In this document: positions 25,332 through 63,876 of the stretch, piece by piece
How positions within the stretch are numbered: position 1 is the stretch's first letter
How the letters are laid out: the number at the start of each line of letters is the position of its first letter
Assembly: GCA_021234155.1 (NCBI GenBank)
Contig: JAJEKV010000044.1
Coordinates: 9,954,777 to 10,018,776 of the forward strand
From: Isoetes taiwanensis
Lineage: Eukaryota > Streptophyta > Lycopodiopsida > Isoetales > Isoetaceae
DNA: 64,000 bases
Direction of reading: 5' to 3'
Notes under the pieces: generated by a model
The model's input: the letters and a program-made list of their open reading frames with translations, nothing else
What the model was told of the DNA's origin: nothing
Databases searched by the model: none
Translations under genes and position numbers: made by a program

Positions 25332-25343
25332 ATGCGCCTGACC

Positions 25344-40634: not shown

Positions 40635-41307
40635 ATTAATCATGGACGTGTGAAGGCATTTATGTGCATCTCATGTCGTGAATGTGCACACACATGATAG
40701 TGTAATAGTTATGTGGGGATTCAAAAAGATGGGTGCTTACTTGATCCAATATATGATCAGAAAACATCATATTTTTGTTGCAAGATAGAGACCATTTGTG
40801 AATAAAAGATTAGGTTTAAAATTAAGTCAAATACCATGTAAGGGCAGATTGTTGTTGGAAAGGTGGTAGTTGTTGGGAAATAATTGATCAATAATTGATC
40901 AATGTGTTTAGTTTTCAACTATATAGGAGTATATGTTACTATTGTTGCCTACATTTGTTGATTGAGTTCCTTATAGAAATTGTTTGAACTTTAAAATGCT
41001 TATGGTCTGAAGTTTGGAGTCACTCCGTTGACTCAAGTTGTACTCTAGTTGTCTCAACGACTTGTCGAGGATCTATAAAAGTACACCTATATCAACTTTG
41101 AATCTTAGGATCTATAAAAGTACACCTATATCAACTTTGAATCTTAAAGGCATGAGTTGCTGAACATTGATTATAAGAACTTTATCATGATCCAATCAAT
41201 CAATACATGACCAACATTTCAACATTCCCATAAAATATAACTTTTTTCATGTGCAAGAAATTCACTCAACTAATTTTTACAATGGAGCATGGCCAATAAA
41301 GGAGTGA
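40635..41307. other. Unrecognised spacer before unit 2
   Basis: No gene. A 39-bp tandem duplication starting 'aggatctataaaagtacacc' occupies 41,068-41,145. This spacer has no counterpart left of the unit 1 border (13.8-14.07 kb). Confidence 0.55.
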
Positions 41308-41345
41308 ACCCTCTTCTTACGCCCATTCCGTCTATTTCCTTTGCA

Positions 41346-41830
41346 ATGGCCTCTGCATGCAGCGGAAATAAAGCACCCGAGAGTATGTGCTTAAGCAGGT
41401 GCTTGAGGATGCGGACGTCCTTCCCAATACAGAGCGCGTATTTCTCTCGAGCGGTGCAGAGGGAGCGTATTTTTTTTGAGCCGGTTCAACGTAAGAAGCA
41501 ACATAATCGAGGACCGTGGAGGAAGAAGATTGTATTCTTTTGTTTTGCATTTTTTTTTTTTTGTTTTGTTTTTCTTTTGTTTTAACTAAATGCTTTTTTT
41601 GTTTACAGAAGTCGAGCAGGAAGTGGAGTAGGAAGTGGAGAATTCTGAAGAGGAAGAGGAGGAGAATTCGAGGAAGAGGAGGAGGAAGAGGAAGAGGAAG
41701 AGGAAGAAGAGGAAAAACAACTCATTTTTGAGAGCTGCATTTAAGACCGCCTCGGGCCCAAAAGGCAAAAGGAGGCGGAATTGGAGGAGAACGTGTGGAG
41801 GAGTCCGAAGCCCCCGAAGCCCCTAAAAGC
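41346..41830 (+). pseudogene. Short acidic protein gene, unit 2 copy, frame broken
   Basis: It starts MASACSGNKAPE like the unit 1 copy, then shifts frame at 'cccgagagtatg' (two bases longer than 'cccgagtatg' in unit 1). The T-rich intron-like stretch ends in 'ttgtttacag' at about 41,609. Just after it 'gtggag(ta)gaa' is duplicated ('gcaggaagtggagtaggaag'). The Glu-rich exon is shorter than in unit 1, and the basic tail and following C-rich minisatellite (41,805-41,905) are retained. Protein function is unknown. Confidence 0.4.
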
Positions 41831-41905
41831 ACCCAAAAGCCCCATAAAAGCCCCCCAAAACACCCAAAGCCCCCAAAGCCCCAAAAACCCCCGAAAGCCC
41901 AGAAA

Positions 41906-42710
41906 ACACTTGACCTTATGGCCTTTTTGTAAAATATTTTGTTTATATAAAAAGTTTTTTTGTCTCTAGCACTTTGTTCTTTGTTTTTCATTTTTTTTCT
42001 CTATCAAATGTTCTTTTTGTCTATCAAATATATGAAGTTTTTTGTCTCATCTACTTTGTTCTTTGATTATCTCACTTACTTTGTTGTCATCTACTTTTTT
42101 CTTTGTTGTGTCTCACATTTTGTTTTTTCCATTATGTAAAGAATGAATTCATTTGATGTTCTTACTTCTATTATCCATGCAGGTGACAAAACATTGAATT
42201 CTTGTACAGTCCATTCAAATTCTGCTTGAATGTAACAGTGCTCTAGCTCAAAAACTAAGCACTTTAATTAGTTTCAGCAGTGCTTGTGAGTAAGCACTGG
42301 AACACACGAGCACTTATGCAATAAACAGCTAGCTTTAAATAGTTATATAGCATAACAGTAAGCACTGCACCTTAACTGCATGACAGTAAGCACTTGATGA
42401 CATTAACACAAGCAACTACATACTTAGTAACTGTCACTGCATAACAGTAAGCAGTATCTTAATAACTGTCACCCCTTGCAACTACACAACTACATACTTA
42501 GTAACTGTCACAACTACATACTTAGTAACTGTCACCCCTTGCAGTCAGCATTCAACTAGATATAAACAATATAGCAAAAACTTATAGACAAGTCTGCATT
42601 GAACTATATAAACAATATAGCAAAAACATTCTTAAATTAATATAAGATAAAGATGGTACATGAAAAGTGTAGGATTCCTTGGCCTAAATAAATGACAATC
42701 AGGCCAATAA
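41906..42710. repeat. T-rich stretch and degenerate short-repeat array, unit 2
   Basis: Counterpart of 15,040-15,893. The 'actacatacttagtaactgt' array (42,415-42,545) has fewer units than in unit 1. No gene. Confidence 0.55.
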
Positions 42711-45415
42711 TCATAAATGTCTCAGGCTTAAATCGAATGGAGGATGACAATGTTCATCACCATAAACCTTCTCCAATTCCTCATTCACAAGGGTGCACAA
42801 CTGCAATTGTTTTCCAGAAAGTCTTTCCAAGCATAGCTTCATAATCTTTCTATCTGTCATAGGCCAGGGCTTGCAATTGTGTGTGTTCTTCACCAGTAAC
42901 TTCATTTTTTCCTCAGTCTTGGCCTACAATATTCCTTCTATCTTTGGGGTGAGTACTGTTAGCACTTCATCACAGACATCCATCTTGAATGCAGGTACTA
43001 GCAGAAGTTTCCAGGGGCTGCTAAGGTAAGACTTGTATAATGAATCATCGAGAAGCAAAGTCTTACCTTTGAATCTTGGGTATGATTCATATATTTTCCC
43101 AAGTGGCTTCATCATGATTGGACAGCCAGATTTGTTAGGGTGGTGAAAACTGTTCACACATTTTTTCTGTCCCCATACAAATAGAAATCCGTCCCTCAAA
43201 TCTGGACATAGTACTTGCAGCACATCTTCCATATTAGAGAGTTGCATTGATGACCATATACCAACACAACACTTCTGTAATAAAGTCTTCAAGAAGAACA
43301 CTGCGTTTAGTCTGAATATCACTTTCTTTCTGCTAGTGTATGTCATTGTCAATCCTGATTCCAAGCGTATGTGTTCATTTGCACCAAAAGTTTTTACCAA
43401 CACACCATTTAAATCCAAGCCAATGAGTTTATCTTTTGCTGCCAAATCAATATTTAGTACGTTGGAACATCCTGAATACCTACACAACAGGAATTACTAC
43501 ATGAATAAATAGATGAAGGTGAAAATGAAAAATGGGTTGAATGTGGAAACCTTTACGTATCAGCAATGAGGATTCTCGACCCTAACAGAATCAAGCGGGT
43601 AATCCCTACAAATGAATACAACAAAGAAAATCAATAATATTCAATGTTTTAAGCAACACTAAGTTGTGGCCTTGGCGACACTTCCCTACACCGACTTTCT
43701 AGGTTTTGTAAGGGCATCAATCACTTGTTGAAGATCAGGCTCACCTGAAACTTGAGGGCCCGATTCTACATTTTCTTCAGAATATACTTTGATAGGTGTG
43801 GTGTCATGATTGAGACTGCTTCCTGTATCTTTCACGGTCTTTGCTTCTTGTTCTCTTTCTTGTAACTGAACAACTTCTTTGCTATCCTCCGACTTACCCC
43901 TCTTTGTTCTTCTGCCCTTTCCTTTTGGCAAAAATTCACCCAAGTTGCCCTCATCCAATGGAATTACTCCCTCAACTTCCTTAAGTGCTTCAATGTGTAC
44001 ACTTTCGGGCTGTTGTTTTTCCCTGGCGGTGCTATGTTTTTTAGTCTTTGTGTTCTGACTTCTTCTATAGCTTCTTGGGCGACTTCTTGGGTGGTGGTGG
44101 TGGTTACTGTTTGTTGCATTCAAATCAGTCACAATTGATTGTACTCCTATAGGACTTTGCAGGTGTTGTGCATCTTCAAAGGAAACCATTGTCCTTCTTT
44201 GAACCCTGTAGGGTGAGACCTCAATTGCAGGACGGATTAACACATCCTTTTTGGTGTACTATTTGAAGCACACGCAAGATGGCCAAAACCTAGCTCGTCA
44301 AATACACCCTCTCGGCACCTTTCTAGGGCAACCATGAATACATTGTCCTCCTCTCAACAATGAACAACATGCTATATGATACTCAAGTTGGCAATTGATT
44401 GCTAAACTTAACTTTGTAAGCTTTAGTGAATTCGGACCACATCTTGAACATGTATAAAATGGATCTTGCACTAACAACTTATCTCGTATAATAGTAGAGA
44501 TGCTAAATGTTGCGGGAGTATCCATTTTTCAGCTTCCCACAAATTGTTTATGTAGAAATGCAGAAGGACTTTGTTCTTCTTGAGAACTTTTAACTCCTCC
44601 TCAAGTTTGATTTTACATTTTACCTGCTCATTAGCGGATGTAGGGTTCATTGCTTTTGTACCTTGTTCTGTGCCAAGTTTCCATCTGGACAGTCTGCTCC
44701 AAATCTTTAATTTTCTGCCTCCAACTCACGGTTTGGATTAAGCATGAACTCCTCTGCTTTTGTAGCCAAATCATTTGTGGCTTTGTCCTAAACTGTTCTC
44801 GACCTCTTCCAACATCATTTTACGTACTTGAGAGGCCTTCTCATTGCCTTTCAACTCACTTCCCCTTTTGCTTCCGGATTCTTTGTGATATGTAAAATTG
44901 CTTTTCCAATCTCACATCTTTTGCATTCTCTAAGGTTTTTATGTTTTTCATCACATAAGCGATCTCATTTGATCCGTTTGCCACCTTTGGCTTTGCCTTC
45001 ATTTCAGTTTTCTAACATGTGCTACAACATATCGCCTCTGTTTTTACTTGTCTATTGTTGTAGTATCTTTGGCATTACCACGACAAATGCAGTCCGATTT
45101 ACTTTGTGTTCCTCGGGTGCAACTATTGATCTAGTGCAATTTTCAAATGCAAAAGCAAAAAGGGCCGGTTGCTTTCTTACTTCTTTATTGTGACAATTCT
45201 TGTAGATTTTTCGGTTTGTTTCCAACTTCTCTTGAAGATGCTCCTTTGCAGTGCCATTTTATCTTTCCCTTGTTCAACTTCTTTGTCCAAAGCGATTCCC
45301 AATCTCGATCCGTGACATTATTTTCCAACCAAGTTTCTTCCTCGTGGGGCTTCAACCCCGAATTACCTGAACCTCGATCTTTGTGAAAATCATCCGTGCT
45401 CCATGCCTCCATCAT
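42711..45415 (-). pseudogene. FCP1/NLI phosphatase-like gene with RING-like finger, unit 2 copy
   Basis: The start is MMEAWSTDDFHKDRGSG at 45,415. The N-terminal coiled-coil part is broken here (intact in unit 1). The RING-like Cys/His region is at 44,298-44,525 (CSRCG, then CQLEYHIACC, then CIHGC). A 185-codon linker rich in Lys, Glu, Ser and His is open at 43,686-44,243. An intron lies at about 43,480-43,691. The HAD/FCP1 domain is open at 42,924-43,483, with DLNGVLVKTF at the catalytic position, WSSMQLSN in the middle and LLLDDSLYKSYL near the end. A TAG at about 42,927 sits where consensus with unit 1 suggests a CTGCAG site, and the same frame then continues to HPPFDLSLRHL-stop at 42,711. 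Members dephosphorylate proteins such as the Pol II tail, but the Asp-to-Asn change makes catalysis doubtful. Combining the two copies suggests a gene that was recently intact. Confidence 0.65.
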
Positions 45416-45479
45416 CAGCGGTCAAACAACGGTCGAGTTTTTCCCGCCGGGAAAAGGAGGGAGAAGGGTGTGACGAACT

Positions 45480-46257
45480 TCGAAACGTCCATGAAGTTTC
45501 AGCGCTTAAAGTGCTTAAGCGCTTCACCAAAAGTTGTACCCCACTAAGCGATTTTACACCCAAAGGCGGATGCGGATAAAATTACGGGACTTTATGCGGG
45601 AATGCGAGGGGCACACCATCAACGATGCTATCAATCTCAACACCCGGTAAGCAATGAAGGCTTGACCCGATAGGGGTCATGCGAGCCCCAGTCGGATAGA
45701 TGCATCTTATTTGGGTTGGGCATATTAAATCATAGAAACCTTGATCAACCCGGCAATAATAGGAACATAGCCATTCCTTATGCAGCGATGATATGCGGGA
45801 CTTAGGCATGGTAGGATAACCTTCTTTTCTTATTTGTTTCAAAAAGGGGAGGGGGGGGGAGGTGGTTTCTTCAACCACATTCTTTACTTACTAAATAATA
45901 TCTTGATGTACTATAATTTTGCAAGCCCGATGGCGTGTACGGAGGCTTTGCGTTTTTCTATCACGGCATCGAGGGGCCATCTCTGTTTTACATATGTTGT
46001 TTTGTCTACGTCCTGTTTTGTTATCACTGGGTCCCCTATAGACCTAGTTGTAATTTCCTGTTTTGTTATCATGTTAATGTTCTTGAATTGACTACGGTCC
46101 TAAACTTACCTGATCTATGATCGTCGTGTAAATTGCATTACCTTATGCAATTAGGAATGAATATAGTATCTTTTGACTTAATTAATCATTTCTTTTTTAC
46201 ATACATCAACTTAGTAACTCTAATGCTGAGGACAACATTATTCTAAAGGGGGTAGAA
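45480..46257 (+). mobile_element. Residual internal sequence of the gypsy-type element, unit 2
   Basis: Counterpart of 18,660-19,419, ending in the polypurine tract 'ctaaagggggtagaa' before the LTR. A G-run at 45,847-45,859 differs in length from unit 1. No retroviral enzyme domain remains. Confidence 0.5.
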
Positions 46258-48552
46258 TGTGACATTCCATGTATTTATATGGTATACGTATAACTACCTG
46301 ACACATCACCAGTGTATTGGGACCATTGGGGACTAACCTAAAAGGGTTTATTGCAATTAACCTAACCTAATTAGACTAAGTAATGGTATTAACTAGTAAA
46401 ATAGGCTAGTTAGAGAGTGCCACTTGGCCTAATTCGATTGGCCAGAGGCAGCTTGCCATTTTTGGAGGGCAAATTGAGCTCCCAGCCCAATTCTGCCCCA
46501 AATTCGAGTTTGGAAAGAGTTGAGGAAGGAAGGAGCTGCCACAACCTGAAACCTGACCTGTTCTATGGATGTTCTTCGCGATACGGGCTCGAGCCCGAAT
46601 AGTGGTTAGTTTAGCCTAGTTTGTGTTCTGCTAACCTTTGTATGAGTAGATGAATGATTAAAATCTATTCTATAATCTATTGGAGAAGGATGATAGATGC
46701 TTTGAAGATGATTGCTCTCTCTTCTTGTTCCTCCCGTGTAGGGGTAGAAACCTAAAAGCTATATAGATTTAGTGATGCTCCTAGCTAGAACCCTTTAAAT
46801 CCCAGTAAATGTGGCATGTGCACAAGAGCCCACCTAGCTGTGGATACTATGAAGTGATTCAACACCAAATAACGAGTATGATGGTGAATCAGCAGTGGGA
46901 TCTTGCCTAGCGTGGCTGCAGGACTCCTACAGTGTGCTAGGCTTATAGCCGGTCCTTTTGAGAGGGCTGAGCATGGAGCGACACACTCTTTGGGTAAAAG
47001 AGGCGTGCCTATATGGACACCACGGACTCGAGCAGGCGGGGGAGTCGGCCTTTAGATTTAGGAAAGTAAGTCGAGGTCACAGAATGGGGGTCAGCGATGT
47101 GGCACGTGTTCTTTAGCACACCAGGATCTATCATGCTCCGGGGTGGGGGCGCCTCTACACTGCCCTCCCGGTGGGGGATGTAACAGGGAGGCGGTCTCAT
47201 AGGGTGATTCCAGGATTGTGTCTCCGGAGGGCTACAATCATGCCATAGCATATTTCAGCCTATCTGCAAAGCATGCACATGACGGGCGGATGGAGTAGAC
47301 TACCCTAGCCATTGTTCTATGCCAGCCAATTCCATTGTCATGATTCCGCCTGTCATTATTTGAAGGCCTTGACCGTCCATTGACCCCTTGAGCCTGAGCC
47401 CGGGGTAGAGCCTAAATTGATGCATTGCTTATATTGTGTTGTTTATGAGATATTATCCTTATTGTTGATGGATGGACCACCCTTCGAGGTGGTATGTTAT
47501 TTGATATATTGTGTGCTAGGTGCTAACTTGTATTTACTGTTACAGTTTTTTTGAAAGCCGTGAGACCGCCTGGGAGCGGTAGTTAGGATTTTTGCTTAGG
47601 AGGTGCCACTAGATGGCATGGGAACGTCTGGGAACGTTCCAAAAGGTTAGAAACTGTCTAGGTGCAATCTTGGTTAATTTTTAAATGGCAATTCTTTCGT
47701 ACAGAAAGTGAACATTTAATTAAAATGTTAAAATGGCTTTTAAAAGGCTAAAACCATTGAATGGAGAGGTCTGCGTGGTGGAACCTCATTGGTTGTATCT
47801 ATTCTAGGGGGATTCGTCCCTCTGTTATTGCGAACAGCAGCGAGGCTGCGGATGGATCTGTCTAAAAGGTTTCAGATCTGCAGAAAAAGGATGCGATTTC
47901 AAGGTTGGAAAAGGCCCAAAGCCTTTTCATAGTCTAATCTTAGCCTTGCCATCGGTATATAAAGGATGGGAGCCGCTTTGAAATGGAGGTTCTTTGTTCT
48001 TGGAGCAAACCATTTGTGTTCTTGGCAAGACTATACGACTTGATCCTCCATATTCTGCTGTTATAGACTATTTCGGATTAGTCATAGATCAATCCAGGTC
48101 TTTCTAGGTATCTCAAAGCTTAGTGTTTGCTTTTGGAGATTATCCCTTTGTTAGTGTGTCGGTGCTCTTCTTGAGCAATACTGCAGTAGCAGTATCGGTT
48201 CTTTTGATAAGAACTATTGAAGCTGAGCTTCAAGTTAATCCTGGGGATTAGTTGTCGGCTGTGCGTGGGGAGTTCTGGGAACTCAAAGCTAAGGGGAACT
48301 CAGGGGAGTTCAAGGTAGCACAAACGATCCCTCTTTCTTTTTGTAGACTGCAACATTTACGCTTTCGCGATTCAGGACTCCCATAGAAGGCGTGGGACGA
48401 ATAACACCTCTGTGTCCTTCACCCATGCATTTGACCATCCCAGGTGGCCCGGGTAGACGGAGGGCCTTTTCTACGGTGATGTAGTCACCATGGAAGGGGG
48501 ATTTCACGTATTTGTACTATGGGAGCATCGTCTAGAGTAGGGGAGCGTCACA
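46258..48552 (+). mobile_element. Long terminal repeat, about 2.3 kb, unit 2
   Basis: It has the same TGTGACATTCC start and GGGAGCGTCACA end as 19,420-21,723, with a TATA box (tatataaag) at about 47,957. It is near-identical to the unit 1 LTR except for a damaged patch at about 46,960-47,190, which is full of small indels. Confidence 0.8.
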
Positions 48553-50431
48553 AAGAGCTATTTAGGAACGTGTTTGCAATGGAGATCTGCAACAATATAA
48601 GCAAGCAACTCCTAAACTAACCCTAAATAACTTGGAATTTAAAAGATCAAGAAAGCATAATCTCTGATGCCACAATCTATTCGTGTCATTGTGTGTCAAG
48701 AATAGAGAACCGCATTATAGACCTTAATGTCCCCAGTCATAATAGGTGAATTAATGTGTTTGCAAATTGAACACATTGGTTGCATCTTTATTGGCCCCTC
48801 CCACCATCGTATCTTTAAACAAACTACAAAATCCTCCCCATAAATGAAATGAAGCCGTTGTCTTTATTGTACAAAAGACTTCCCAAGCTGTTGACTTAAA
48901 GCAAAGATTTTCAAAAAATCAAGATCACTCATTTTTTACATTTTTTAAGCATCATTGTGTTCCATTTATTGTAGATATTGATTTGTTGACTTAAAGCAAA
49001 GATTTTCAAAAAATCAAGATCAATCATTTTTGACATTTTCTTTAAGCATCATTGTGTTGCACACCATTTATTGTAGATAATGTTTTGCAGTCAATGACTA
49101 GAACAAAAATTTGGCACAATTGTAACTATTGTGTAATAAATAGAAACTTCAACTATTGTTTAAACAATTTGTTGTATGGATCTCATTATTTATCCCTAAG
49201 CAAACGAACTAACATGTCAAACATTTACTAGAGTTTAGCATTAGTAATCATAAAGTACTTGACAACCAACCTCTTCCATAGCCAATCTCATCCCCATATT
49301 GAACAAAACACTTTACTACCATGAAAGACAAGTTTGGCTATAGCATGCTAAATTCATAATGCAGGTGAGCACAAAGCATAGATATTAATGTGTCGGCCAT
49401 GTTGTAGCCACTGGAATTTGCATTCATGTGATAGTATATTTTGACACACGCCCCTACATTTAGTCACACAAATGCATTACATTGTCGCATTGGACATCAA
49501 TTGACCACATGTTTACTATTGCTCGACATCTACCACAATATTTCTTGACTACAATCATACACAACTTTGATCCCATTGTGTACATCATGACTAGATTATT
49601 TTTCAACCCCATTGCCCAACACCCCCAAAAAAAAAAAAGGGAAAGGGAAAAAATAAAATAAAAAGCAAAGAAGCACACGAGGAAGGCTTTAGCAAGGTAA
49701 GAATTGTTAGATTTTTATTTAGGCTTTGGTGGCGATTGGTGGCTAAGCATTTTCTAGTTGTGAAATTTTGCTTCTTTAGGGCGAAATCACACTATAGGAC
49801 CGAGCACCCTATCACACTTAGGATGCTAAAATACGGTCCTTGAGGGCACCACCGAGTATTTTAGACTAATGACATTACCTACAAAAAGCTTACGTAGGCA
49901 TCACATCACCAACTATATCCCCGTAATCAAGCTTCTTCCCTGATTGCATTCCTGAATCCAGCATGAATTTTCACTATTCACCTTTTTGGGCAATGATTGT
50001 TCTATTTTTTGGTAGTTTGTTGGTCCAATGGTCATCAATTCGGATTCAAACACTTTGTTATTGATTAAATTGGAGCTTCTGACGATTATAAAAATTAAAT
50101 TAAACTTTCAAAATCTAATGAGATTTGGCATCGAAGATCATCGATGCTTCATGAAAAATTATCAATGGCGATGACTTTGTGCCATTTTGTTTTTAGATCG
50201 ATACAAAATCATTGGCGCGTTCATTTGCTTCTGACCAGGATGACATGTAAGTCTTTATAAAATATTTTGACATGATAGTGCGACGTCGACTAATGATAGA
50301 ACCATTTATGGGCTCAACACCCGCCTAAACATGAGACATATTTATTTAGACTCTGCCATAGTGTGATTCCAACCTTAGTTGTGAAATTTTGCTTCTTCTT
50401 TGGCTGTGATTTCGCATTATTTATTGATGGG
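48553..50431. other. Unrecognised stretch after the LTR, unit 2
   Basis: Counterpart of 21,724-23,600 with the same internal repeat of 'ttgacttaaagcaaagattt'. The A/G-rich tract at 49,622-49,660 and the following 600 bp differ from unit 1 in many small places. No gene. Confidence 0.45.
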
Positions 50432-50440
50432 TTGTTATTA

Positions 50441-51254
50441 GGGAAAATTCTAAAACTACCCCTATATCTTAATATAATTATCAAATTACCCCTGTATTTA
50501 CAAAAACTATCAAAATGCCCTTCTTTTTGTAGCAACGACTATTCTCTTCACGCAGAAGAACATCGCCCCAAAACCAATTCTGTTCTTTCGGCAAAGCATG
50601 GTCTTGAATCCATTATCTAAAGAAGATTAAAGAGAGATTTGAAACGGAAGGAGTTTGTCAGAGAAAACCCTCTTCTCTGAGTGATTATTCTATCTGCATG
50701 TTTTATTTTGAAACAATGATTGCCTTGATGAGAAAAAAAGTGAGAATAAGAGATAAAATGGGTGGATCCACAAAAGGATACTTCATCTGCTTTGCGTGCC
50801 TTTTTGACGAGAATTAAACATGACTAACTTATAGCGAGGATTCAAACAATTATCTTCTACATTTTGTTAAATTTGAATTGGCAAAACCTACACTTACAGG
50901 GGTATGAAATGGGCGGAAGAAGCCCAATAAAAAAACCACCGGTAGTAAGAGGAGAATGAGCTCGGAAAAGCGGGCTTTAGTATGTCTTTATTTTTCACAA
51001 GTTTACGTACTTATGGGCTGCCGATTTTGCTTACACACTTGGACCGATTTGGATCTATCTCCAAGGAAGTTAAAAATATCCTATTCGAGTTCCACAGTTC
51101 ACGGTAAAACTCGTCTGATTATGAAGATTGAGATTGTTTTCTAGAGTCAAAATCTGAGAGTCATGTCAATACGGGGACATTTTAACAAATTCAAAAATAC
51201 AAAGGGCATTATAACAATTTCGAACAAAACGAAGGGCATTTTTAGAATTTTTCC
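50441..51254. mobile_element. MULE-type non-autonomous element with 9-bp target duplication, unit 2
   Basis: TTGTTATTA flanks both sides (50,432-50,440 and 51,255-51,263). The ends GGGAAAATTCTAAAAC and the reverse complement of GGAAAAATTCTAAAAATGCCC pair slightly better than in unit 1. Length 814 bp. No coding capacity. Confidence 0.75.
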
Positions 51255-51263
51255 TTGTTATTA

Positions 51264-53278: not shown

Positions 53279-53665
53279 ATGGGCTTTAAAAGGAAGGATC
53301 ATGGCGCGGCCTCTAGAATGTCTACAATTCTATCAGCGATAAAAAAAAAAAGATTGGAACAACGGGATGAACTTGAAGGAAATAGTGCAAAACAATGGAG
53401 TGGGAAGGAACTTTGTTCTTTTTCTTCACGCCTTGACCAAAAACACGGCGAAGGGATCGAAAAGGAAAAAAAAAAAAGGCAAAATAGCGAAGGGATCGAA
53501 AAGGAAAAAAAGAGATGGTTTGAGGAGCGGATGCGGGCGGCCGTTCTAATGGACCGCCATGATTACGAGACACAGGGAGAATGTAATGGGCAGCATCTAC
53601 GTAATGCATCCTTTGCCATGCTAAAAAAGCAGTTTTTTCTTGCCATGGCCAAAAAAGTGCCCTAA
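53279..53665 (+). pseudogene. Coding-like fragment, unit 2 copy, unknown protein
   Basis: The open frame starts MGFKRKDHGAASRMSTILSA and is Lys/Glu-rich. GIEKEKK occurs twice because of a duplication of about 33 bp that is absent from unit 1. It ends near FFLAMAKKVP. The longer frame and conserved start suggest this was an exon of a real gene. No family recognised. Confidence 0.35.
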
Positions 53666-55002
53666 AAGCGATATAAAATCGAGAAAGCGAATCAAGAAAA
53701 CCTACAAAGAAGGCGAGAATTTGCCCGATCTTGGAAAAGCAGCGACCCAAATCCGCGGAGAAAATTGGAGCTTACTAACGGTAACAAAAGCCCGAAGGCG
53801 GGGGGGAAGAAGCGGTTGTGTAGGAGAAACAAAGGCAAGAAAAATGCGAAGGATCAGAGACTAGAAGAAATAAGATGAAGGATTGATTGATCGTGCTTGG
53901 AAGAGGAAAAATACACGGGATTGATGAGCAAGGGACCGCTTCTCTTCCCATCTTTGTGCCCATTTTTGACCGAATTTTTAATTTCCACGGCCTTAGATTT
54001 GTAAGTCTAGAGATCGATGGTGCAAAATAAACCCATCGGATTTTGATGATATGGAAATTACGTGGATAGGCTAGAATTTGAGGAAAAAGCTGTAAGCTTA
54101 GGTAAGGATGGTGTGCTAGAAAAATAACATAAAATAAAATAAAATAAAATCCAAAAAGTAATGCACAAGATGGCCACCCAAATCTACACATCCCACACAC
54201 ATATAAAATAGTTTACACATGCGGAACATCCATACATCCCACACACATATAAAATACACAAGGCCCCCAAAATTGAATCAGTATGATTTTTTTCTAATGA
54301 TTTCCTAATGAAAATCAACTCTTAAAATCGATATTGATTTGTGGGCCAAAAAGTTTACAAACCATGTCTAGTTATACAGTATAGCTCATCAGTACAGTCT
54401 CGAGATATGATAAACAAACGTGTTTTTATTAAGGTAGTGAAACATGACAATTATAGTTGACTTCTATAACAATCTAAAATATATGATATGTTATAGTAGT
54501 TAATTCGTCAAGTTAAGTAGAATAGTATCTGATCAGGTCTATCTTCCTTAGTTTATTGATTTGGTAATTTTAAGTGCATAATGTGTATCTTCTGTTGTTT
54601 ATTGACGTGGTAATTTGAAGTGCATATATTATAGCGATTTAAAGTGAACGAGAATCAAGCTTCAAATGTTATGGAACAAACCAAAAGCTCAACAACAAGA
54701 AACAAAAACATAATGCAAGATCAGAAAAACCAGTACTTATTTTTGAAGAGCTTGTCGAATTTGGTTTCAAAGTACGCAAGGACCTAACATCAAGCTTGCC
54801 AACCTCGAGCATAGATGAAAGCGCCATTTCTGGTTTTCAAAAAAAAAAAAAAAAAAAAAGCCACAATACACTAGAGTAAGATGTTTAGACAAACAAACCT
54901 CTTTTCTAGATTGCCAAGGTATCTGTAAGGTTGTCAAGCTCTTATTCTTGAGCATCTGCAATACAAAATAGGCTAAGAGATCATATAGATTTTAATCGCA
55001 CA
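53666..55002. other. Unrecognised stretch, unit 2
   Basis: Counterpart of 25,578-27,060. The (aaaat)n run at 54,128-54,151 is shorter than in unit 1 and the A-run at 54,839-54,859 is longer. No gene. Confidence 0.45.
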
Positions 55003-55725
55003 AGAAAACTTCGAAGCATCACCTCAACTAGATTCTAGCTTCTTCCCAATCCAGCGATAAACTGCAAGGACTCGAGGCTTAGCATGCGGAAGTAAAAGAT
55101 CAAGAGAAACCTTAAAGAAGCGTTTGATATCATACCGGATAGTGGTTTTAGGCTATTGAAATCCAGCGCCACAACATCGGATCAAAGTAGGAAGAACACC
55201 GCATTGGAAAAATAGAGATAGATAGAGAAAAAAAATGTTTGAATGCATCAGGCCGGATCCCAAGGGCGCCATACATCCGGATGGCGGGATGAGCTCCATA
55301 AAGAGAAAAAAAACGTTGAGGTATTAGGTTTCCGGATATCCTTTTGGGCGTTGAAGAAGGAAAAAAGAAGGTTTCGGTGAAAATTCTTTCCCATAAAAAA
55401 CAAGAAAACTTCGAGCGACACCTCAATTAGATTCTAGCTTCTTCCCAATCCAGCGATAAACACCAAGGACTCACGGGAGGCTTAGCATGCGAGTAAAAGA
55501 TCAAGAGAAACCTTAAAAAGCGGTTTGATATCATACGGATAGCGGATTAGGCTATTGAAATCACGAGGCGCCACATCATCCGGGCAAGATCAAGAGTAGG
55601 AAGAACACCACCGCATTGGAAAAATAGAGATAGATAGAGACAAAAAATGTTTGAATGCATCGGCGGATCCCAAAGCCATACATCCGTCTGACGGGATGAG
55701 CTCCAAGTAACCGTAAAGAAAACAA
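55003..55725. repeat. Direct duplication with 400-bp period, unit 2
   Basis: Counterpart of 27,061-27,799. The two blocks start at 55,003 and 55,403. This patch is heavily altered relative to unit 1, mostly at CAG/CTG positions. Confidence 0.75.
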
Positions 55726-58700
55726 GGTCTTTGCCGACGGGAGGTTGCCCTCCATGGCCGGAGGGTGAAGTGGCTTAGGAGCAGGTTTGACAACCCACGG
55801 TACCACCCTATCATTCCACGCCCTCTTGTTACTCCAATAGTACACATTAGATGAAGAAGGGGCGTTTGTTGTCTCCATTGTGCACATTAATCTGTCAAAA
55901 TATTATGTGATGAGATGCCTGTATCAATTTTCTCTTGGTGCAGCCCACATTCTATGTAGTCAAGTACATAACTACATAACGATGAAATAACTACATAGCC
56001 AATATAAAAGAAATATCATTTTTAAAATTTTGTCCAACATATATCCATCATATGCCCAACATTTATATATTCTTAACACTTTCCCATCATTTTATTGCAT
56101 ATGTTGGCTAATATTTGTAGAACATATTCTTTGACATTATATTTTTTACAACAAATAATTGCCCAATATTTAATGCGTAACACTTATTAATATTTCGAGA
56201 ACTATTTTTCAACATTGCGAACCAGGATTGGATAACATATATGCAAGTAACATTTGTCAATGTTTGCTAAGTATTTGCCATGATCTACCCATGCATTGAG
56301 GAGGGGTAGAAAACGGCAGAATGCTATTTCTTAGATTGGGTTTTCATAATCCTCCAAACGCATTGGACTTGCAAGCCTTTACCCATATTTACGTATGTAG
56401 GTTTCACCAAAGGAACCAAAGGAACAACTAGAAGATGTGCCATGATATTGTAAATATGATTGTTATTGATAGGCCATGAAACTATTAAAATTGTTAGCTA
56501 ATCTATTATTATTGCCATTCAGTCAATGGTAAGGAAGTTGAGAACCATCAACAAATTGCATCAAATGTTTTAATAATGCAATCCTCCACTAGAGGGGGTG
56601 CCGGTAGCGGTTGTATGTTATATATAGAATGCTTGGTACATATATTATATATACTACAAGTCTTTGTACTATAAGAGGGTGCACAAAGTCAAATGTATGT
56701 ACGTTGGGGCATATAGACTTCCCAATCCTGTGAAGGAAAGTTTACCAACATTCCATTAAGACTATTAGATATTCTAAGATATTCTAAGTTTTCTAGGAAT
56801 CTATTAAGATTCTCCAAGGTATTGCAGTACACCTTAAGATTATATAAAGATTCACTACAAAGCACACCAATCTGAAAGTTATACCTGGATTCCCTTAAAA
56901 TTCCCCCAAAAAACAATGATGTCCTCATTTCAAGTTCTTGACAATGCAGAACTTGAAGATAAGGGTTGTGACCTTTTTACTACCAACAATCAAAGGAGCA
57001 TACGGTCAAAAAAGTTATTGGCAATATTGCCACCAAATTCTCGAATTATTGGGTACGTTGTACACTTATTAGAGATCCTTCTCCTCGTTTTCGAAAAAAT
57101 TGGGCTTCTAATTAAAATGATTCAAAATAAAATAGTCCCGACACGAGTTAACATTCACAATTAAGTAAGTTGTAAGTGTAATGCACATACTTCCTACAGG
57201 CTATTCAAAAAATGAACTTGTAAATACCAGATTCTAATATTGAATTAAATCTTGGCAATATGCTTCTAAAAAGAGGATATTTTGATTTGTCAATGCCATA
57301 ATCATACTGCTCATATGTGATTCTCGGCGATGGAAAAGAGAAGAACAAAGTTAGCCTAATCAAAGCAGTTGTATAAATCACACGAAGACCAACGCATACA
57401 CATTTGGATGTTTTAAAGCATATTCAAAGCATATGCACCGTATGAATGATGAGTTTACTTACAACATGAGGTTTGATGGTTTAGTTTCGCTGGTTTGAAT
57501 ATAATGCAGGGTCAAACATATAATGTAGAGAAGGTGACATTGAAATTGTTGTGGATTTCCTGGGCTTCGGAAGCAGAGATCATGCCAGGTAAGACATTCC
57601 CATCTGTGTTTTGTATTGGTTGATGACATGCAAGATTCTAAGCTCGAATATTTCTTGTTGCATCCAGCTCCAAAGATATAATTTAGAGGAGACATTGAAT
57701 TCTACTTATCTGAGCCAATGGCACCCTAGATGCTGGAAGTAGAACACATCTTCACCAAGATCTCTATAATAGTGGCATTGTTTTCACTAACAGACGATCT
57801 TTCATTCACACGTATTCTCTGATTACATTTAAGGTTAGGATTCAAGAAAGGAAGCAATAAATTGCTTAGTGTGCTCTCAAGTCCAAACATATAATTTAGA
57901 GCAGACGTTGAATATGACTATTGTCGCTACCTATAGGAACTAAAGAGGCTGCAAAGATAAACAAATGCCTTAAATGTGTGATATCATTGAGTAATAACTA
58001 ATTGAATGCAAAAGCAACCCATATTAATTTCCCTGGACTCTGGTAAAGGGTCAAGCTCACAAAACACTTAGCATATTTTGATGATGCAAAGGGGCACTTG
58101 GTGTGTTATTGCGACCATGTTCTCTGGTCTAATTTTAGTGCATGGCAATCTAGGGGGGAACTTATGCTACAATAGGTCTGAAGTGCAAAGATTGAGTGGG
58201 GGCTCCAACGTAAACTTCTCCATAATGTAGTCATTTTGTTATAAACCATAAACATGTCTCAGTTGCTATAACAAAACAACGAGGTTAATTAGATAGTTTC
58301 TAGTCATACGCTAAGTTCAACTTTTGCTAACTGCAACCCAGGACAACCAATTCTTGAATGATAAGAATTTCTTGTGGTTCTACCAATGACCTTCCTTTCA
58401 ACATCCTAACAATGCAAAACCTCAAGTTGAGTGCAATCGAGATGATTGAAAATGTACCCATAGGTTGTTATCCTGTTTATTAAAGGAGACATTGAACGTG
58501 ACTTATTTGGGCTAAAAGCACACGGCAACTATTGTGAATAGATGCCAATATCTTAGCAACGAGTGTTTTGTTTCAAAGTGATTGGGTTATCATTGTCGTG
58601 AGAAAAAAATACCCCTTGCCTTTAAAAAAATGTTGATTTAGTTAACATCTTCGGGGTTCCAAGGTTGTCAAGTTTCCAGTACCATCTATAATAGTTGAGA

Positions 58701-58740
58701 TGATTCCATATATGTAATATGTCTCAAGGTCTACGTATGC
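55726..58740. other. Unrecognised stretch, unit 2, clean match to unit 1
   Basis: Counterpart of 27,800-30,830 and nearly identical from about 55,950 on. No gene recognised. Confidence 0.5.
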
Positions 58741-58990
58741 AACGTCTAGATGCTATAATCCTACTGACGTGGCACAAATATGGCTTATTGCTAAAATTCC
58801 CAACATCCGCCCTTAAGCCATATTTTCATAAAGCTGCAATTCTTTAACGTAATATCCTCCTAATGATGGAAGTAGAAGCTTGAGCATTCACTAAACGATG
58901 GTTCTTTGCACCACATTTGGAGCAAAGGCGATGAGGACAATCTTTAAGTGGTGGCACGCCCAATAAACCCCCTTGAGCAGAATCTTTTTT
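58700..58990 (-). mobile_element. Copia-like LTR start plus gag zinc-knuckle fragment, unit 2
   Basis: The LTR start TGTTGGGAATTTTAGC reads downward from 58,805, preceded on the minus strand by the polypurine tract and by a CCHC knuckle at about 58,880-58,920. That knuckle is disturbed here by a change at the 'ccagtgg' to 'cgatgg' site. No pol domains. Confidence 0.5.
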
Positions 58991-61640
58991 GAGCTCCGGA
59001 TATAGCGGCGACATTGGAGTTTATCTTCTAACACATATAAGCCCGGCACTTACAAAAATAAGCTCCGATTAAAGAGCGGCTTATTATGAGGTCATATTAT
59101 GCACGAATTTGGGCGGATTCTAGAGAATTGAAGTACATCAATCAAGCTGTCAAGAAAGAGGGTGGCATTTGTTGCCATGCATTCAAGCATTCTTGATTGT
59201 GGTGGCCCAGCCTTCATATACTTGTAAAAGCCTTATTGTTGTCTTGACTCCTAGAAGCTGAATGCAAGTTAATCCCCATACCTTAAAAACCTAGATGTAT
59301 TCGCATGACAAGCTAATAGCGGGCACAAGAAGAATGAACCATTAGCATACCAACATCAAGTGGATCGTGTGTCTCGGATTATCTATCTCAAATTTTTACG
59401 GCGAGGCTAATGTAAGGGCACCACGTTCTATCGCTGCGCCTCATAATCTGCAAAAAGCGAGAATTCTCTAAAAGGAAGTTCACACTAAAAAGCGAGGAGG
59501 AAAAATGGATCAATGAGCATGATCATTTGTTGCAATTTGATGATACCTTGCCCGGCTTGTTCATGTTCGCGACTCCTTTGTCATGGAGTCGATAAATGGT
59601 GGAAGCAATATTGAAAGAACAATCGGTCAAAATAAATGAGCATTCCAATTATTTCGGATAACGAGAATGGAGCGAAACCATTTTAATATTAGTGTGTGAT
59701 GTACACCTAGGGACAAATATGTCCCCTAGAAAATATTAGTATGATACTAAACTACTTATTGAAAAAGAATCTAATATTGTCCTTTGCCTCGACCTTTGCT
59801 TCAAAGGCATTGTTGTGCTTACCAATCATCCATCACTGTGCTTACCCAGGTCATCCATCCGAACTGCGCTTCAACATATGATAATCTTTGCACAAGACCT
59901 AATCACACTTTTGTAAATCGAGAGAGAATATATGCATCCCGGTGACATTTCACGAAGCAATACAATCAAATAAGAATATAAGAGTTTGCACACATCGAAC
60001 ATGATGTTTTTAAGCGGAACTTCGACATAAACAACGTTTATGATATGTTGCCCACATCAATTTCTATTTAATCAATTATATTGGCAACAAAAAGTGAATA
60101 TTTGAAATTTTCAAACTGGAAAGGAATTCTTAACTACATTTTGGGGACCAGTACAAAGGAAAAAACAAAGAAGGTGATAAAGAAGTCATTAAGAATGCAA
60201 AGGGTAGGCAACACCAATTACACAAGCGGATATGTCATGATTCGACTTTTTGAATCTAATAGCATGCCTCGAACACATGTATTGTGTATCATTTAGGATG
60301 GACTTCTATGAAGCAAATGAAGTTGCCATCTAAAAAGACAATGGAAACTTAGAAAATCAAGCTGAATCAAGCGAAATGGAGACATGAGCTCAAAGTTGGC
60401 TCTTGCATGAACACACATGAACAACGAGAACATGATGCCTTTTTCGGCGAGAAACATTGAGGATGGAGGTGCGAGGTTATGGCGGCGACCGAGGGGCTTC
60501 ATATATGTGATCCCTAATCTTGGGTGTTGGCATCTAAATTCGTCGTCCAATCTTCGTAGCACTTTCTCAGCAACCTCCTCCGGCAGCATGATGAAGATTG
60601 CTTCCATTTTGCAACACCGTCGAGCTCATCAGTCCAAAACAAAGCAAATCATGAAAGGCAGAGTAATAACTGCCATGCTCTTGGAAGCCGGAGGAAAATG
60701 CTTGAAAGAAGAAGAAGGGTCGAGCAGCGCCATAGCCACGCCTGCGAAGGAATGGAAATTTGGATGGCCAGAGTTTTTCTGATGGCCGGTTTGGAACGAT
60801 CACCCGACATATGCTAGGCATATCTTGGAGCATATCTGGATATGCCCACGAACCCACATAAACGAGGGTTTGCCCCCCTAGGGGCAACCCAAAAACGTTG
60901 AAGTATTAGGTTTCCAGATATCCTTTTGGGCGTTGAAGAAGGAAAAAAGAAGGTTTTGGTGAAAATTCTTTCCCTCCAAAAAAAAATGTAATCTTAAATA
61001 CGCATGCAATGGAATTTTCATAATTTACAAAAATGAGACCATCAAATTTTAGCCCTTTCAGGGTGTTTTTATTTTATACCTTCATGAGGCCCAAATTACT
61101 TAAGAATACTTGCTTTTTTGCATCTAGGTAATTTTTGGGTGCTTTTTTTTGGCGGCCTTCAAGCTGCGTCGCCAACAGAGTTATGCTTTCTTGCCCCCTT
61201 TCCTAATGCCAAAGCCGGAACACAGACGAAGGTCATAGCCCTACTAAAAACCTAGCCGGCCATAGCCTTGCCATAGCCCCACAAAAAACCCGTCATAGCC
61301 TTGCCGATACAAACGAAGGCCATAGACTCACAGAAAACATAGACGAAGGCCATAGCTTCAGATGAAGATGGGCTTTGGTGTAAGGCTATGGTGTTTTTGC
61401 ATCGGAGACTCTGCAGAAGGCTTTGCATTGGAGGCTTTGCACAAAGCTATGGTTCCTGCTTTGAAGGCTCTGCACAAGGCTTTGCAACCGATTTGGGAGG
61501 CCTTCAATCAAATTTGCATGAGTAATCTGCTATCAACTGCCTATAATTTCTGTTTTATGTTGCGTTTCTTATCTTTTCAGGTAATCTGGGCCTGATGAAG
61601 GCCACGTCAGGGAATCTTCGCACTTGAAGGTTTATGGAAG
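58991..61640. other. Unrecognised stretch with coding-like pieces, unit 2
   Basis: Counterpart of 31,050-33,700. At 60,607 downward (minus strand) a frame begins MEAIFIMLPEEVAEKVLRRL and stays open for 104 codons. It may be a first exon, family unknown. At 61,145-61,640 the inverted 'ggccatagc' motifs recur. Confidence 0.4.
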
Positions 61641-63429
61641 GAACCTAGTGGCACTGTCGCTCGCGGCTATCGCCGCCAGGTTCCTTCCAGGAACCTTCAA
61701 ATGATGAAGGTTCTCCCATACAAAGCATAAGCTCTTGTTGAAATTGTTGTCCAATGTCATCAACAATAATGAAAATGGGCTCACTTTTTGTGCAACTCAC
61801 GTGCTTGGTTGTCACATATAGTTCTCGAACATCATGATGTCCGAACATGGTATAACAATTGAAGTCACACATTTCTATGGGGACCAATTTCATAACTTTC
61901 AAAGATGCTCTATCTTAAAAGCCGCGATTCGCATTGCGACATTGTTAAAAAGAGTTTTCTAAGTGAAAGCTTAATCGAGTTGTTTGTATGAGACAAAAAA
62001 TGGAATAGTGGTACTTTGTCCTCTATTCATATTGGTGTTTATCTAGGAAGCACTAGCATTTAAATGAAATTATTGGCTCGACTATTTGTGCATCTCTGTA
62101 GAAATGACCTGCACACAAATTTGCTTCAAAATGTGGCTTTGATATTGTGCTTCCATTGGGAGGCTATTTATATCAGGCTACGTTTGCTATGGTGTCTATT
62201 ATTAAGGTCAATAACATTGCACACTAAATTTATGCTTTACGAATCAAGTTGGATTAATATACTTTAGTAAAACATGCTAAACCTTTTGCTAGACAATTTT
62301 TCTTAAGCAACTTTGAAAAATGCGCTTGCTTTGGTATGTAGCCCTTATACATTGTACCTTAAAAAACATCTACTCTATTTGAGTATTGCATGGCATTGTA
62401 ACATTGTCTAGAAAACGCATACATTGCACCTTTAGAAGTACATCTTTGTTTGAGTACCGCATTGCATTCTGGCGTTGACTGGACAATGTAAGTATCGTGT
62501 GTGGTTTTCCCTTTCACAAAAGCACCCTATGTCTATAGGGTGCTTTAGATGCCATCAATTTTCTTCAAACTTTATATGGTGTTTCATCAAACACCAGATA
62601 TGCATGGTTCACAGAACATTCCCTTTTCTATGCTATAGTATAAATCATTAGCTCTTGGGTATAAATCATTGCAATGTCTAACTTCTATTTCGTTTATAGT
62701 GTCCAGTGCCTAAGGCACTCTTATAAAGTTGCTATACATGTGCCTTTCTATATATGACAAATATATCATGCTAAAATATATATGAAATATGTGATTATCT
62801 AATTTGATTGCATCCAAATGTCACCTTCATGATTTTCTTGAGGAAGTCCTTTTTTTTTAATTCATTAGATTTAAGTGTTTCTATTAATTGGATTGTATAC
62901 ATCTTAGCAAACTAATGGTAAGTGTGCAATTATACACTTGATCCGATCCAAAAGCATGACGTGAAAATACTATTTATCTATTTCTATTGGTTGAAAACAA
63001 GGAAGAAAGTAGTTCATGAAATACATTATGCAACCAGTAAGCAAGTCCATGCATAAATTTGTGAATGTATTTAAGAACCATGTTTCGAAATTAAGTACAG
63101 TAGAATTACTAGTTAATATTATACCTTATGCTCAAAGTCAATAGTTAATTTAAAATTGGCATAAGCTTGTAATAGAACCATCATCGTAAACTAACATAAT
63201 AAACTATTTTTAAGAAGCAAAGTAAACAACTTATGCCAAAAACCATCACACGCCACAAAATCAAACACGATTTTTGAACTAACTAGGAGAGCATTAAACT
63301 AGGAGAACTATATAGTTTACACATGCCCGACATCCATTTCATCCCATCGCATCCCATCCCATCCTGCCCCATTCCTTGCATCAACCCATTCTTTGAACTA
63401 TTGCGTCTACCCATTTCATGTCTTATGAC
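61641..63429. other. Unrecognised AT-rich stretch, unit 2
   Basis: Counterpart of 33,700-35,500 with the same hairpin 'aaagcaccctat' at about 62,517-62,544. A 12-bp stretch is lost near 62,820. A foldback lies at about 61,640-61,705 around 'ggttccttccaggaacc'. No gene. Confidence 0.5.
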
Positions 63430-63432
63430 TAA

Positions 63433-63462
63433 TGCCGGGCATTGCCGGGCACGCGTTTCTAG
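63433..63462 (+). mobile_element. Helitron 3' terminus, unit 2
   Basis: 'gccgggcattgccgggcacg' followed by 'cgtttCTAG' and T. The left arm of the hairpin carries one substitution (GCCGGGC for GCCCGGC). It is more complete than the unit 1 copy, and flanking homology with unit 0 starts at the very next base. Confidence 0.65.
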
Positions 63463-63666
63463 TCGTGATTCATAAAATAAATGTTCGAGGTGGCTATCAG
63501 CAATAATCCACAAGGCTACGAGAATGAGTGAATTATTCCGTACCATGACGAGGGAGAGGGAGCATTTGACCCCTTAAATGAGGGGCAACAAGATTATCCT
63601 AATTTGAACTGTACTTTACAAACTTGAGGAGTTAAATTGACTTCATGTAATAACAAATGCATCTAT

Positions 63667-63876
63667 CTTGGTTCCGGAAATTTTTTAAGCACAATCGGCA
63701 CATTTCTTGTTGGATCTAACCCAACCTACTAGGTACATACTCCGCACTCCATTCCTACTAGAAATAACAAGAAAATTGCTATTTTTAGCAGGATTTTTTC
63801 TTGCTATTTCTAATAACACTGTGAATTTTCAACGATATTTCCCAAACCAAGTTTCATCGGCATTTCTTGAACCAAG
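63667..63876. mobile_element. hAT-type MITE, 210 bp, unit 2
   Basis: Flanked by GCATCTAT on both sides (63,659-63,666 and 63,877-63,884), an 8-bp target duplication. Ends are CTTGGTTCC and GAACCAAG, with an internal palindrome around 'cttgctatttct'. No coding capacity. Confidence 0.8.

What the first reader, a model, noticed from the sequence alone, without database searches (positions are those of the whole stretch)
41308..61700. Unit differences concentrate on CAG/CTG: likely CHG-methylation base-calling errors
Comparing units by eye, the differing sites are mostly CAG or CTG. Examples: 'acctggg' (25,049) against 'acacggg' (52,989); 'tttctgtac' (24,168) against 'tttacgtac' (51,002); 'gtctgcaag' (26,830) against 'gtacgcaag'; 'cctgccc' (31,013) against 'cacgccc'; 'catctggtg' (31,998) against 'catcccggtg'; 'ttcagctt' (32,295) against 'ttcgactt'. 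True CHG deamination would give TAG/TTG, not these mixed changes and indels. Plant CHG cytosines are heavily methylated in repeats, and raw nanopore calls are known to err at modified bases. Clean patches (28.0-30.8, 33.8-35.5 kb) would be those that short-read polishing could reach.
Basis: partly seen in the sequence, partly recalled or inferred. Interest (0 to 1): 0.75.

Follow-up and report, generated by a model that had tools for sequence, protein, structure and literature searches.

The report
Methylation-triggered sequencing errors scramble CAG/CTG
Long stretches of this plant genome assembly carry false letters at most places where the true DNA reads CAG or CTG, most likely because the nanopore base-caller did not recognise plant-type methylated cytosines, so many apparent differences between repeats there are sequencing errors and not mutations.

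Summary
The window carries two direct copies (U1 14.4-36.0 kb; U2 41.3-64.0 kb). In 'dirty' patches 168 of 225 CAG/CTG of U1 are altered in U2, against 2157 of 8702 3-mers overall. Isolated point differences are about equally dense in clean and dirty patches (100 per 10,757 columns; 105 per 9,007), while complex multi-base changes rise from 9 to 208. Typical changes are CTG->ACG/GCG and CCAG->CGG/CGAG. Third copies elsewhere mostly keep CAG/CTG. A pair with 11% ordinary divergence shows no CAG/CTG excess. Outcomes are strand-asymmetric. Of 15 repeat copies, six lost 11-15 of 15 sites, seven at most 4, one 7; one was the reference. I conclude these are base-calling errors left unpolished, most likely triggered by CHG methylation. 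Corrections: U1 is also scrambled (about 16.0-17.3 and 32.6-33.8 kb), and so are some loci on other contigs. CHG methylation was not measured; the evidence for it is indirect and mixed.

The parts
14432..36007 (+). Unit 1 (U1), first copy of the direct duplication; mostly the better-read copy
   Evidence: self-BLAST, 92.2-92.5% to U2; patch profile
41307..63986 (+). Unit 2 (U2), second copy, continuing beyond the window into L017
43830..45960 (+). Dirty patch, CWG scrambled mainly in U2 (U1 about 17.0-19.15 kb); at U1 17-18 kb both copies are damaged (10 losses in U2, 5 in U1)
49670..51250 (+). U2 dirty patch (U1 22.84-24.42 kb); CTG->ACG etc.
52915..55930 (+). U2 dirty patch (U1 24.98-28.0 kb); over U1 24.98-26.19 kb 27 of 32 CWG that U2 lacks are kept in a third copy
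58840..60510 (+). U2 dirty patch (U1 30.9-32.6 kb); U1 31-32 kb is mixed (5 losses in U2, 4 in U1)
16000..17300 (+). Dirty patch in which U1 is largely the scrambled copy (NIF-like reading frame broken here, intact in U2)
32600..33800 (+). Dirty patch in which U1 is largely the scrambled copy
28000..30800 (+). Clean patch of U1 (U2 about 55.92-58.8 kb): 0.2-2.8% mismatches per 500 bases
34000..36000 (+). Clean patch of U1 (U2 about 61.94-63.98 kb): 0.4-1.8% mismatches per 500 bases
27058..27805 (+). Two copies (A1, A2) of a 330-base repeat, CWG mostly intact
55000..55705 (+). Their U2 counterparts (B1, B2): 14/15 and 15/15 CWG altered relative to L025, at the same sites, products partly different
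42924..43493 (-). NIF-like phosphatase reading frame (PF03031), intact in U2, with a frame change and stops in U1 (16.1-16.66 kb)

Best explanation
The excess differences are not in the DNA. Native Isoetes DNA was read on R9.4.1 pores with Guppy 3.1, a model that had not learnt plant CHG methylation. A 5-methylcytosine in CAG or CTG shifts the current, and the caller writes a nearby, often CG-containing, string instead (CTG->ACG or GCG, CCAG->CGG or CGAG, CAG->CGG/CGA). This is systematic per strand, so read-only consensus (miniasm, racon) keeps it. Illumina polishing (pilon) repairs it only where short reads are placed; in near-identical copies one copy tends to end up repaired and the other not, patch by patch. 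Shown: CWG-specific, strand-asymmetric, recurrent, non-mutational substitutions in patches here and at some loci on other contigs, and a published pipeline able to produce them. Inferred: that the genome is I. taiwanensis v1, that the modification is CHG 5mC, and that read placement decides which patches were repaired.
For: CWG altered 168/225 vs 2157/8702 3-mers; 155/202 vs 1620/8012 in U2-damaged stretches. Isolated SNV density similar in clean and dirty patches (100/10,757; 105/9,007 columns) while complex events go from 9 to 208. CTG->ACG 12 but CAG->CGT 1; the outcome tables of the two strands differ more than in any of 5000 permutations. Another locus, L005, shows the opposite strand pattern (CAG->CGC 4, CGT 1, CTG->ACG/GCG 0); Fisher p 3e-4 against U2. 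Third copies keep CWG that U2 lacks: 27 of 32; 6 of 9 (both copies); 10 of 14 (at least 3 of 4 copies); 1 of 3. U1 vs third copy L010 at 89% identity: CWG 12/80 vs other 0.16; U2 vs the same locus, longer alignment: 68/122 vs 0.17 (sites of both sequences counted). Of 14 copies compared with L025, six lost 11-15 of 15 CWG, seven at most 4 of 12-15, L032 7 of 15. Genome 1,658,258,908 bases in 1110 contigs against 1658.30 Mb, 204 scaffolds + 909 contigs (1113) for I. taiwanensis made with R9.4.1, Guppy 3.1, miniasm, racon, pilon, LR_Gapcloser (PMC8566536, passages). Dcm precedent: with stock ONT models about 70% of consensus errors in Dcm motifs, almost gone with models trained on methylated DNA (PMC6591954, passages). 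[quoted passage not shown]
Against: No reads, current traces or methylation calls were available. 159 of 300 complex blocks show no net CWG change, so other error types are present too. CG-containing 3-mers are also altered often (148 of 340 in the U2-damaged stretches, summed), so the effect is not purely CHG. Isolated SNVs are not wholly neutral: 34 of 105 in dirty patches are CpG-type against 15 of 100 in clean ones, and where third copies exist 32 of 49 isolated SNVs side with U1, 13 with U2, 4 with neither, so either some are errors too or the third copies are nearer to U1. The mutational footprint of CHG methylation (CWG C>T above CHH) was significant in one of five pairs in the clean comparison (11/528 vs 34/5059, p 0.0025); L020/L021, L003/L004, L018 and the CER1 pair were not, and L003/L004 went the other way. 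CWG depletion is not seen in U1 24-28 kb (o/e 0.97) or L020 (0.93), only in other stretches. L013/L015 carry many complex differences outside CWG. Some non-CWG columns also unite scrambled copies.
Confidence: 0.85

Rival explanations
1. Generic nanopore error: CAG/CTG k-mers are poorly called by this model whether or not the cytosine is methylated; methylation is irrelevant.
For: Only the sequence motif was tested; methylation state was not measured. U1 24-28 kb, opposite scrambled sites, shows no long-term CWG depletion (o/e 0.97). Single-base indels also rise in dirty patches (54 against 9), 28 of the 54 in homopolymers.
Against: In K. pneumoniae about 70% of consensus errors of stock ONT callers fell in methylated Dcm motifs and nearly vanished with models trained on methylated DNA (PMC6591954, passages), so CWG as such does not seem to be the difficulty. 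The motif hit here is CHG-type (CAG and CTG; CAA, CTA and CAT are below average). Three clean repeat patches are CWG-depleted (o/e 0.34-0.76) against 1.23 in the gene region.
Confidence: 0.1
2. True sequence divergence, patchily erased by gene conversion between the two copies, so that dirty patches are old and clean patches recently converted.
For: Divergence is strongly patchy, as conversion would give.
Against: Isolated SNVs are about equally dense in both patch classes and complex events differ. A pair of 11% ordinary divergence shows no CWG excess. Strand asymmetry and recurrence at the same sites in unlinked copies are not expected from mutation.
Confidence: 0.03
3. A real CHG-directed mutator (deamination or RIP-like) acted on U2 and some other copies.
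For: CpG- and CHG-deamination-type changes exist: CTG->TTG/CTA with CAG->CAA/TAG 21, and CTG->CCG with CAG->CGG 31, of 167 scored outcomes.
Against: Together these are 52 of 167; frequent others (ACG, GCG, GAG, GG, CTTTG) are not single deaminations, and 71 of 106 complex blocks that lose CWG in U2 gain CG.
Confidence: 0.01
4. The two units are one locus or two haplotypes laid end to end by the assembler, so that the same DNA appears twice at different polishing quality. (Not exclusive of the best explanation.)
For: Point divergence in clean patches is only about 1%; the paper reports a haplotig-purging step.
Against: U2 has about 1.1 kb that U1 lacks; the spacer and CER1-like gene also recur downstream at 97%. 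None of this excludes haplotypes. This rival concerns the duplication and would not change the base-calling conclusion.
Confidence: 0.15

Closest known systems
Dcm (CCWGG) 5mC-induced nanopore consensus errors (Wick et al. 2019, PMC6591954; passages read)
   Same: Systematic consensus errors at a symmetric 5mC motif that the model was not trained on.
   Different: The motif here is CAG/CTG in general, not CCWGG (8 of 202 sites); it is in a plant, and errors sit in patches, presumably those left by short-read polishing.
Strand-specific nanopore miscalls at telomere repeats (PMC9414165; passages read)
   Same: Strand-specific replacement of one string by another with a similar current profile.
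   Different: There the proposed cause is similarity of current profiles between repeats; here the sites are dispersed CWG and methylation is the likely cause.
Low accuracy of native plant DNA with stock base-callers (Ferguson et al. 2022, PMC9749173, passages; PMC7501810, passages)
   Same: Plant methylation is named there as a likely reason for lower base-calling accuracy.
   Different: In the passages read no motif-level error grammar or assembled example is given; the term search found no 'CHG' in the held main text of PMC9749173.

Membership tests
5mC-induced nanopore base-calling errors | Errors concentrate at one methylation motif | tested here: met
   155/202 CWG vs 1620/8012 3-mers; CG-containing 3-mers are also raised, 148/340
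5mC-induced nanopore base-calling errors | Outcome depends on the strand read | tested here: met
   CTG->ACG 12 vs CAG->CGT 1, permutation p 2e-4; reversed pattern in L005 (Fisher). The strand of the reads themselves was not seen
5mC-induced nanopore base-calling errors | Same context gives the error recurrently at unlinked loci | tested here: met
   six of 15 copies held (B1, B2, L028, L024a, L024b, L033), on four contigs
5mC-induced nanopore base-calling errors | Sample sequenced as native DNA on nanopores with a model not trained on the motif | tested here: inconclusive
   assembly statistics fit I. taiwanensis v1 (1110 contigs held, 1113 published); Guppy training data as stated in PMC7501810. 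The match is by size and contig count, not by accession
5mC-induced nanopore base-calling errors | The affected sites are methylated | tested here: inconclusive
   only indirect and mixed: CWG o/e 0.34-0.76 in three clean repeat patches vs 1.23 in the gene but 0.97 in U1 24-28 kb; CWG C>T 11/528 vs CHH 34/5059 in one of five pairs, the others not significant
5mC-induced nanopore base-calling errors | Errors vanish with amplified DNA or a retrained model | not testable with these tools
   no raw signal held
Dcm (CCWGG) errors in the strict sense | Errors confined to CCAGG/CCTGG | tested here: not met
   147 of 194 CWG outside CCWGG altered; CCWGG 8 of 8
CHG deamination or RIP-type mutation | Single C>T / G>A products | tested here: not met
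   21 of 167 scored outcomes

The most novel reading that the evidence does not exclude
The unpolished patches are an archived, strand-resolved record of CHG methylation. In the six scrambled repeat copies 11-15 of 15 CWG sites are altered, which would mean near-complete maintenance of CHG methylation in Isoetes repeats, and other nanopore draft assemblies of plants could be read the same way without raw signal.
Probability: 0.4. Interest if true: 0.55.

Novelty: new member of a known kind. Interest (0 to 1): 0.42.

Why it matters
What appears to be a published lycophyte assembly contains patches in which repeat copies look 5-12% diverged while isolated point differences are near 1%. Ages of duplications and transposons, gene intactness, CpG content and CAG/CTG counts taken from such patches would be wrong. 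The error grammar (CTG->ACG, CCAG->CGG) offers a simple screen for other plant assemblies made from native nanopore reads with stock base-callers of that time.

Tried and rejected
Considered and rejected: gene conversion, CHG deamination, and Dcm methylation (see rivals and membership test). I also considered that clean patches are simply high-copy elements; one clean stretch (29.0-29.8 kb) showed six further places at 93-98% covering 500 bases or more, among 40 scored of 226 candidates, so this was not supported by that one stretch and not pursued; dirty stretches were not compared in the same way.

Led nowhere: protein searches with two U2 reading frames found no homologue at E 0.001. Rfam found nothing at gathering scores. 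A plasmid search with 28,000-30,800 found nothing. The paper search 'nanopore', 'CHG methylation', 'basecalling errors', 'plant' gave 0 papers. Searches (15 of 15 listed; 15 of 257; 10 of 62; 8 of 8; 12 of 28) listed no title about CWG scrambling of this assembly; I saw only listings and starts of abstracts there, except the papers cited. Of 18 papers, 10 were listed and none had Isoetes methylation in its title. PMC12506013 and PMC8514461 were looked at in passages and added nothing on CWG errors.

Dropped before counts: outcome tables hold only blocks explained by replacing exactly one CWG (167 in U1/U2). Blocks spanning more than 15 columns and U1 positions outside 14,560-36,000 were left out of block counts (613 of 641 kept). 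Columns with event rates between 0.045 and 0.07 belong to neither class. In one search only alignments of 400 or more columns at 80-99.5% identity were kept, and window-window pairs over 5,000 columns were left out. In one search sites in gap columns were not counted; one search recounts pairwise over all CWG of the reference and supersedes it (L028 is 11/15, not 9/9). One search had taken only the plus-strand hits (7 copies). Overlapping places of the same DNA (L031 with L033; L027 with L029) were counted once. The 15 copies are those in the fetched loci; one search scored 40 of 947 candidates, so other copies may exist. The U2-side 'clean' total is inflated by the stretch absent from U1.
Full report
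What is there. The window holds two direct copies: U1 14,432-36,007 and U2 41,307-63,986, 92% identical by BLAST. The duplication continues past the window: L017 matches 35,299-40,605 at 97%. Identity is patchy. Per 500 bases of U1, mismatches range from 0.2-3% (20.5-22.5, 28.0-30.8, 34-36 kb) to 5-12% (for example 16-19, 25-26, 27-28, 32.5-33 kb).

The observation. In dirty patches 168 of 225 CAG/CTG of U1 are altered in U2, against 2157 of 8702 3-mers of all kinds; among the lowest classes are ATA, AAA, ATG, TAA and CAA at 12-15%. In clean patches the figures are 23 of 157 against 521 of 9590. Restricting to four stretches where U2 is mainly the damaged copy, CWG is altered at 155 of 202 sites against 1620 of 8012 overall; CG-containing 3-mers are next (148 of 340, summed from the table), and CAA/TTG 51 of 401.

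It is not ordinary divergence. Isolated single-base differences are about equally dense in clean and dirty patches (100 in 10,757 and 105 in 9,007 columns), though more of the dirty ones are CpG-type (34 of 105 against 15 of 100). What dirty patches add is complex events (208 against 9) and single-base indels (54 against 9). Of 300 complex blocks 106 lose CWG in U2 and 71 of these gain a CG; 35 lose CWG in U1 and 18 of these gain CG; 159 show no net CWG change. A natural control exists: U1 and a third copy on contig C1043 (L010) differ by 11%, yet CWG is altered at 12 of 80 sites against 16% for other 3-mers. U2 against the same locus gives 68 of 122 against 17% (sites of both sequences are counted, and the U2 alignment is longer because it includes the stretch that U1 lacks).

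Which copy is right. For CWG of U1 that U2 lacks, third copies keep CWG in 27 of 32 sites (one third copy, 24.98-26.19 kb), in 6 of 9 (both of two copies, 22.86-23.62 kb), in 10 of 14 (at least three of four copies, 23.61-24.42 kb) and in 1 of 3 (one of two copies, 24.42-24.85 kb; the other two sites fall in a stretch that U2 and both third copies lack). For CWG of U2 that U1 lacks, third copies mostly do not support U2 (0 of 1; 1 of 5 with at least three of four copies; 0 of 7), except 2 of 2 sites at 24.42-24.85 kb. Isolated single-base differences in these stretches side with U1 in 32 of 49 cases, with U2 in 13, with neither in 4, so some simple differences may be errors too, or the third copies are nearer to U1. 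The direction flips by patch: U1 is the damaged copy in the 16-kb and 33-kb bins (9 losses in U1 against 1 in U2 in each); U2 is in most other dirty bins, with the 17-kb and 31-kb bins mixed (10:5 and 5:4). In the first of these the NIF-like reading frame is intact in U2 (42,924-43,493, PF03031) and has a frame change and stops in U1.

Strand and recurrence. Among 167 CWG changes that can be written as the replacement of one CWG, CTG->ACG occurs 12 times but its mirror CAG->CGT once; CTG->GCG 5 against CAG->CGC 0; CAG->GAG 9 against CTG->CTC 0; CAG->CGG 22 against CTG->CCG 9. The difference between the two outcome tables was not reached in 5000 permutations (p 2e-4). At another locus (L006 to L005) the mirror pattern appears: CAG->CGC 4, CGT 1, and no CTG->ACG/GCG; U2 15:1 against L005 0:5 gives Fisher p 3e-4. 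That is what reads of one strand would give and not what mutation of double-stranded DNA gives. In a 330-base repeat with 15 copies held, relative to L025, six copies (B1, B2, L028, L024a, L024b, L033) lost 11-15 of 15 CWG; seven (A1, A2, L026, L029, L027b, L030, L033b) lost at most 4 of 12-15; L032, the most diverged copy, lost 7 of 15 with 38% of other 3-mers changed. Scrambled copies have 15-36% of other 3-mers changed, the seven intact ones 9-24%. The adjacent copies L033 and L033b fall in different classes. In a six-copy comparison (A1, A2, B1, B2, L025, L028) five columns at CWG and one elsewhere unite B1, B2 and L028, whereas ordinary base columns unite L025 with L028 (4) and A2 with B2 (2, plus 3 gap columns). 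Other columns unite B2 with L028 (3 elsewhere, 2 at CWG), B1 with B2 (5 gap columns elsewhere, 2 columns at CWG), and A1 with B1 and B2 (1).

Source. The window lies in a genome of 1,658,258,908 bases in 1110 contigs. The published Isoetes taiwanensis v1 assembly has 1658.30 Mb in 204 scaffolds plus 909 contigs, 1113 in all (PMC8566536, passages read); I infer identity from these figures and from the CER1-like plant gene at 36.8-39.6 kb. It was made from R9.4.1 reads called by Guppy 3.1 flip-flop, assembled with miniasm, polished with racon and pilon, scaffolded with Bionano and gap-filled with LR_Gapcloser. Wick et al. found that with stock ONT models about 70% of consensus errors lay in Dcm motifs and that training on methylated DNA nearly removed them (PMC6591954, passages). 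[quoted passage not shown]

Mechanism. Most likely a methylated CHG cytosine shifts the pore current; the model, which knows 5mC mainly in CpG (my inference), writes a CG-containing string; this is systematic, so racon keeps it; pilon repairs it where Illumina reads are placed. That short reads of both copies pile onto whichever copy was the better draft would explain why patches are repaired in one copy and not the other; this step is inference. Dcm is excluded as the motif: 8 of the 202 CWG are CCWGG, and 147 of the other 194 are altered. Indirect signs of CHG methylation are mixed. CWG observed/expected is 0.34-0.76 in three clean repeat patches, 0.72 in L018 and 1.23 in the gene region, but 0.97 in U1 24-28 kb and 0.93 in L020. 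In clean U1/U2 patches C>T at CWG is 11/528 against 34/5059 at CHH (p 0.0025). The other four pairs were not significant and one (L003/L004) went the other way. CMT homologues are reported in lycophytes (PMC5410703, passages).

Extent. Some loci on other contigs are affected: L005/L006 CWG 49/113 against 7% for other 3-mers; L013/L015 40/76 against 15%, though with many non-CWG errors. Others show little: L020/L021 44/488 against 5%; L003/L004 14/186 against 6%; the L018 inverted repeat 13/131 against 3%; the CER1 stretch 24/308 against 4%.

Verdict. Observation confirmed. Interpretation supported for base-calling error (about 0.95) and probable for CHG methylation as trigger (about 0.85). As biology the excess differences are not real; as an artefact this is the plant CHG counterpart of a known kind.

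Noticed in passing
window 36779-39585 and L017: A CER1-like gene lies in the spacer between the units (CER1-like_C at 39,304-39,585 above Pfam's cut-off; weaker FA_hydroxylase and CER1-like_C exon matches below it); the stretch 35,299-40,605 recurs downstream at 97% with CWG altered at 24/308.
   Followed up: partly
window 51255-52840 against 24420-24980: U2 carries about 1.1 kb that U1 lacks, and L010 (in part also L014), both on C1043, match it; the pieces at both ends of it in U2 and L010 resemble the single U1 stretch 24,658-24,976, as after a deletion between direct repeats in U1.
   Followed up: partly
window 5026-5324: A fold-back element of about 300 bases whose arms are 80% alike; some arm differences swap CAG/CTG for CG strings, so the non-duplicated part of the window may be damaged too.
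   Followed up: partly
window 27796-28000: A stretch of about 205 bases with 30 listed places at 97-99% identity across the genome, from 40 scored of 947 candidates.
   Followed up: no
window 1000-2000 and 42000-43000: Stretches almost free of CpG (observed/expected 0.03 and 0.07) but with normal CAG/CTG.
   Followed up: no
L018 498-3439 and 8511-5569: Inverted repeat with 2.9-kb arms 98.4% alike, roughly 10 to 18 kb downstream of the window end.
   Followed up: no
L020 / L021: A 9.1-kb stretch of C1018 present twice about 120 kb apart at 96.4%, with little CWG damage.
   Followed up: no
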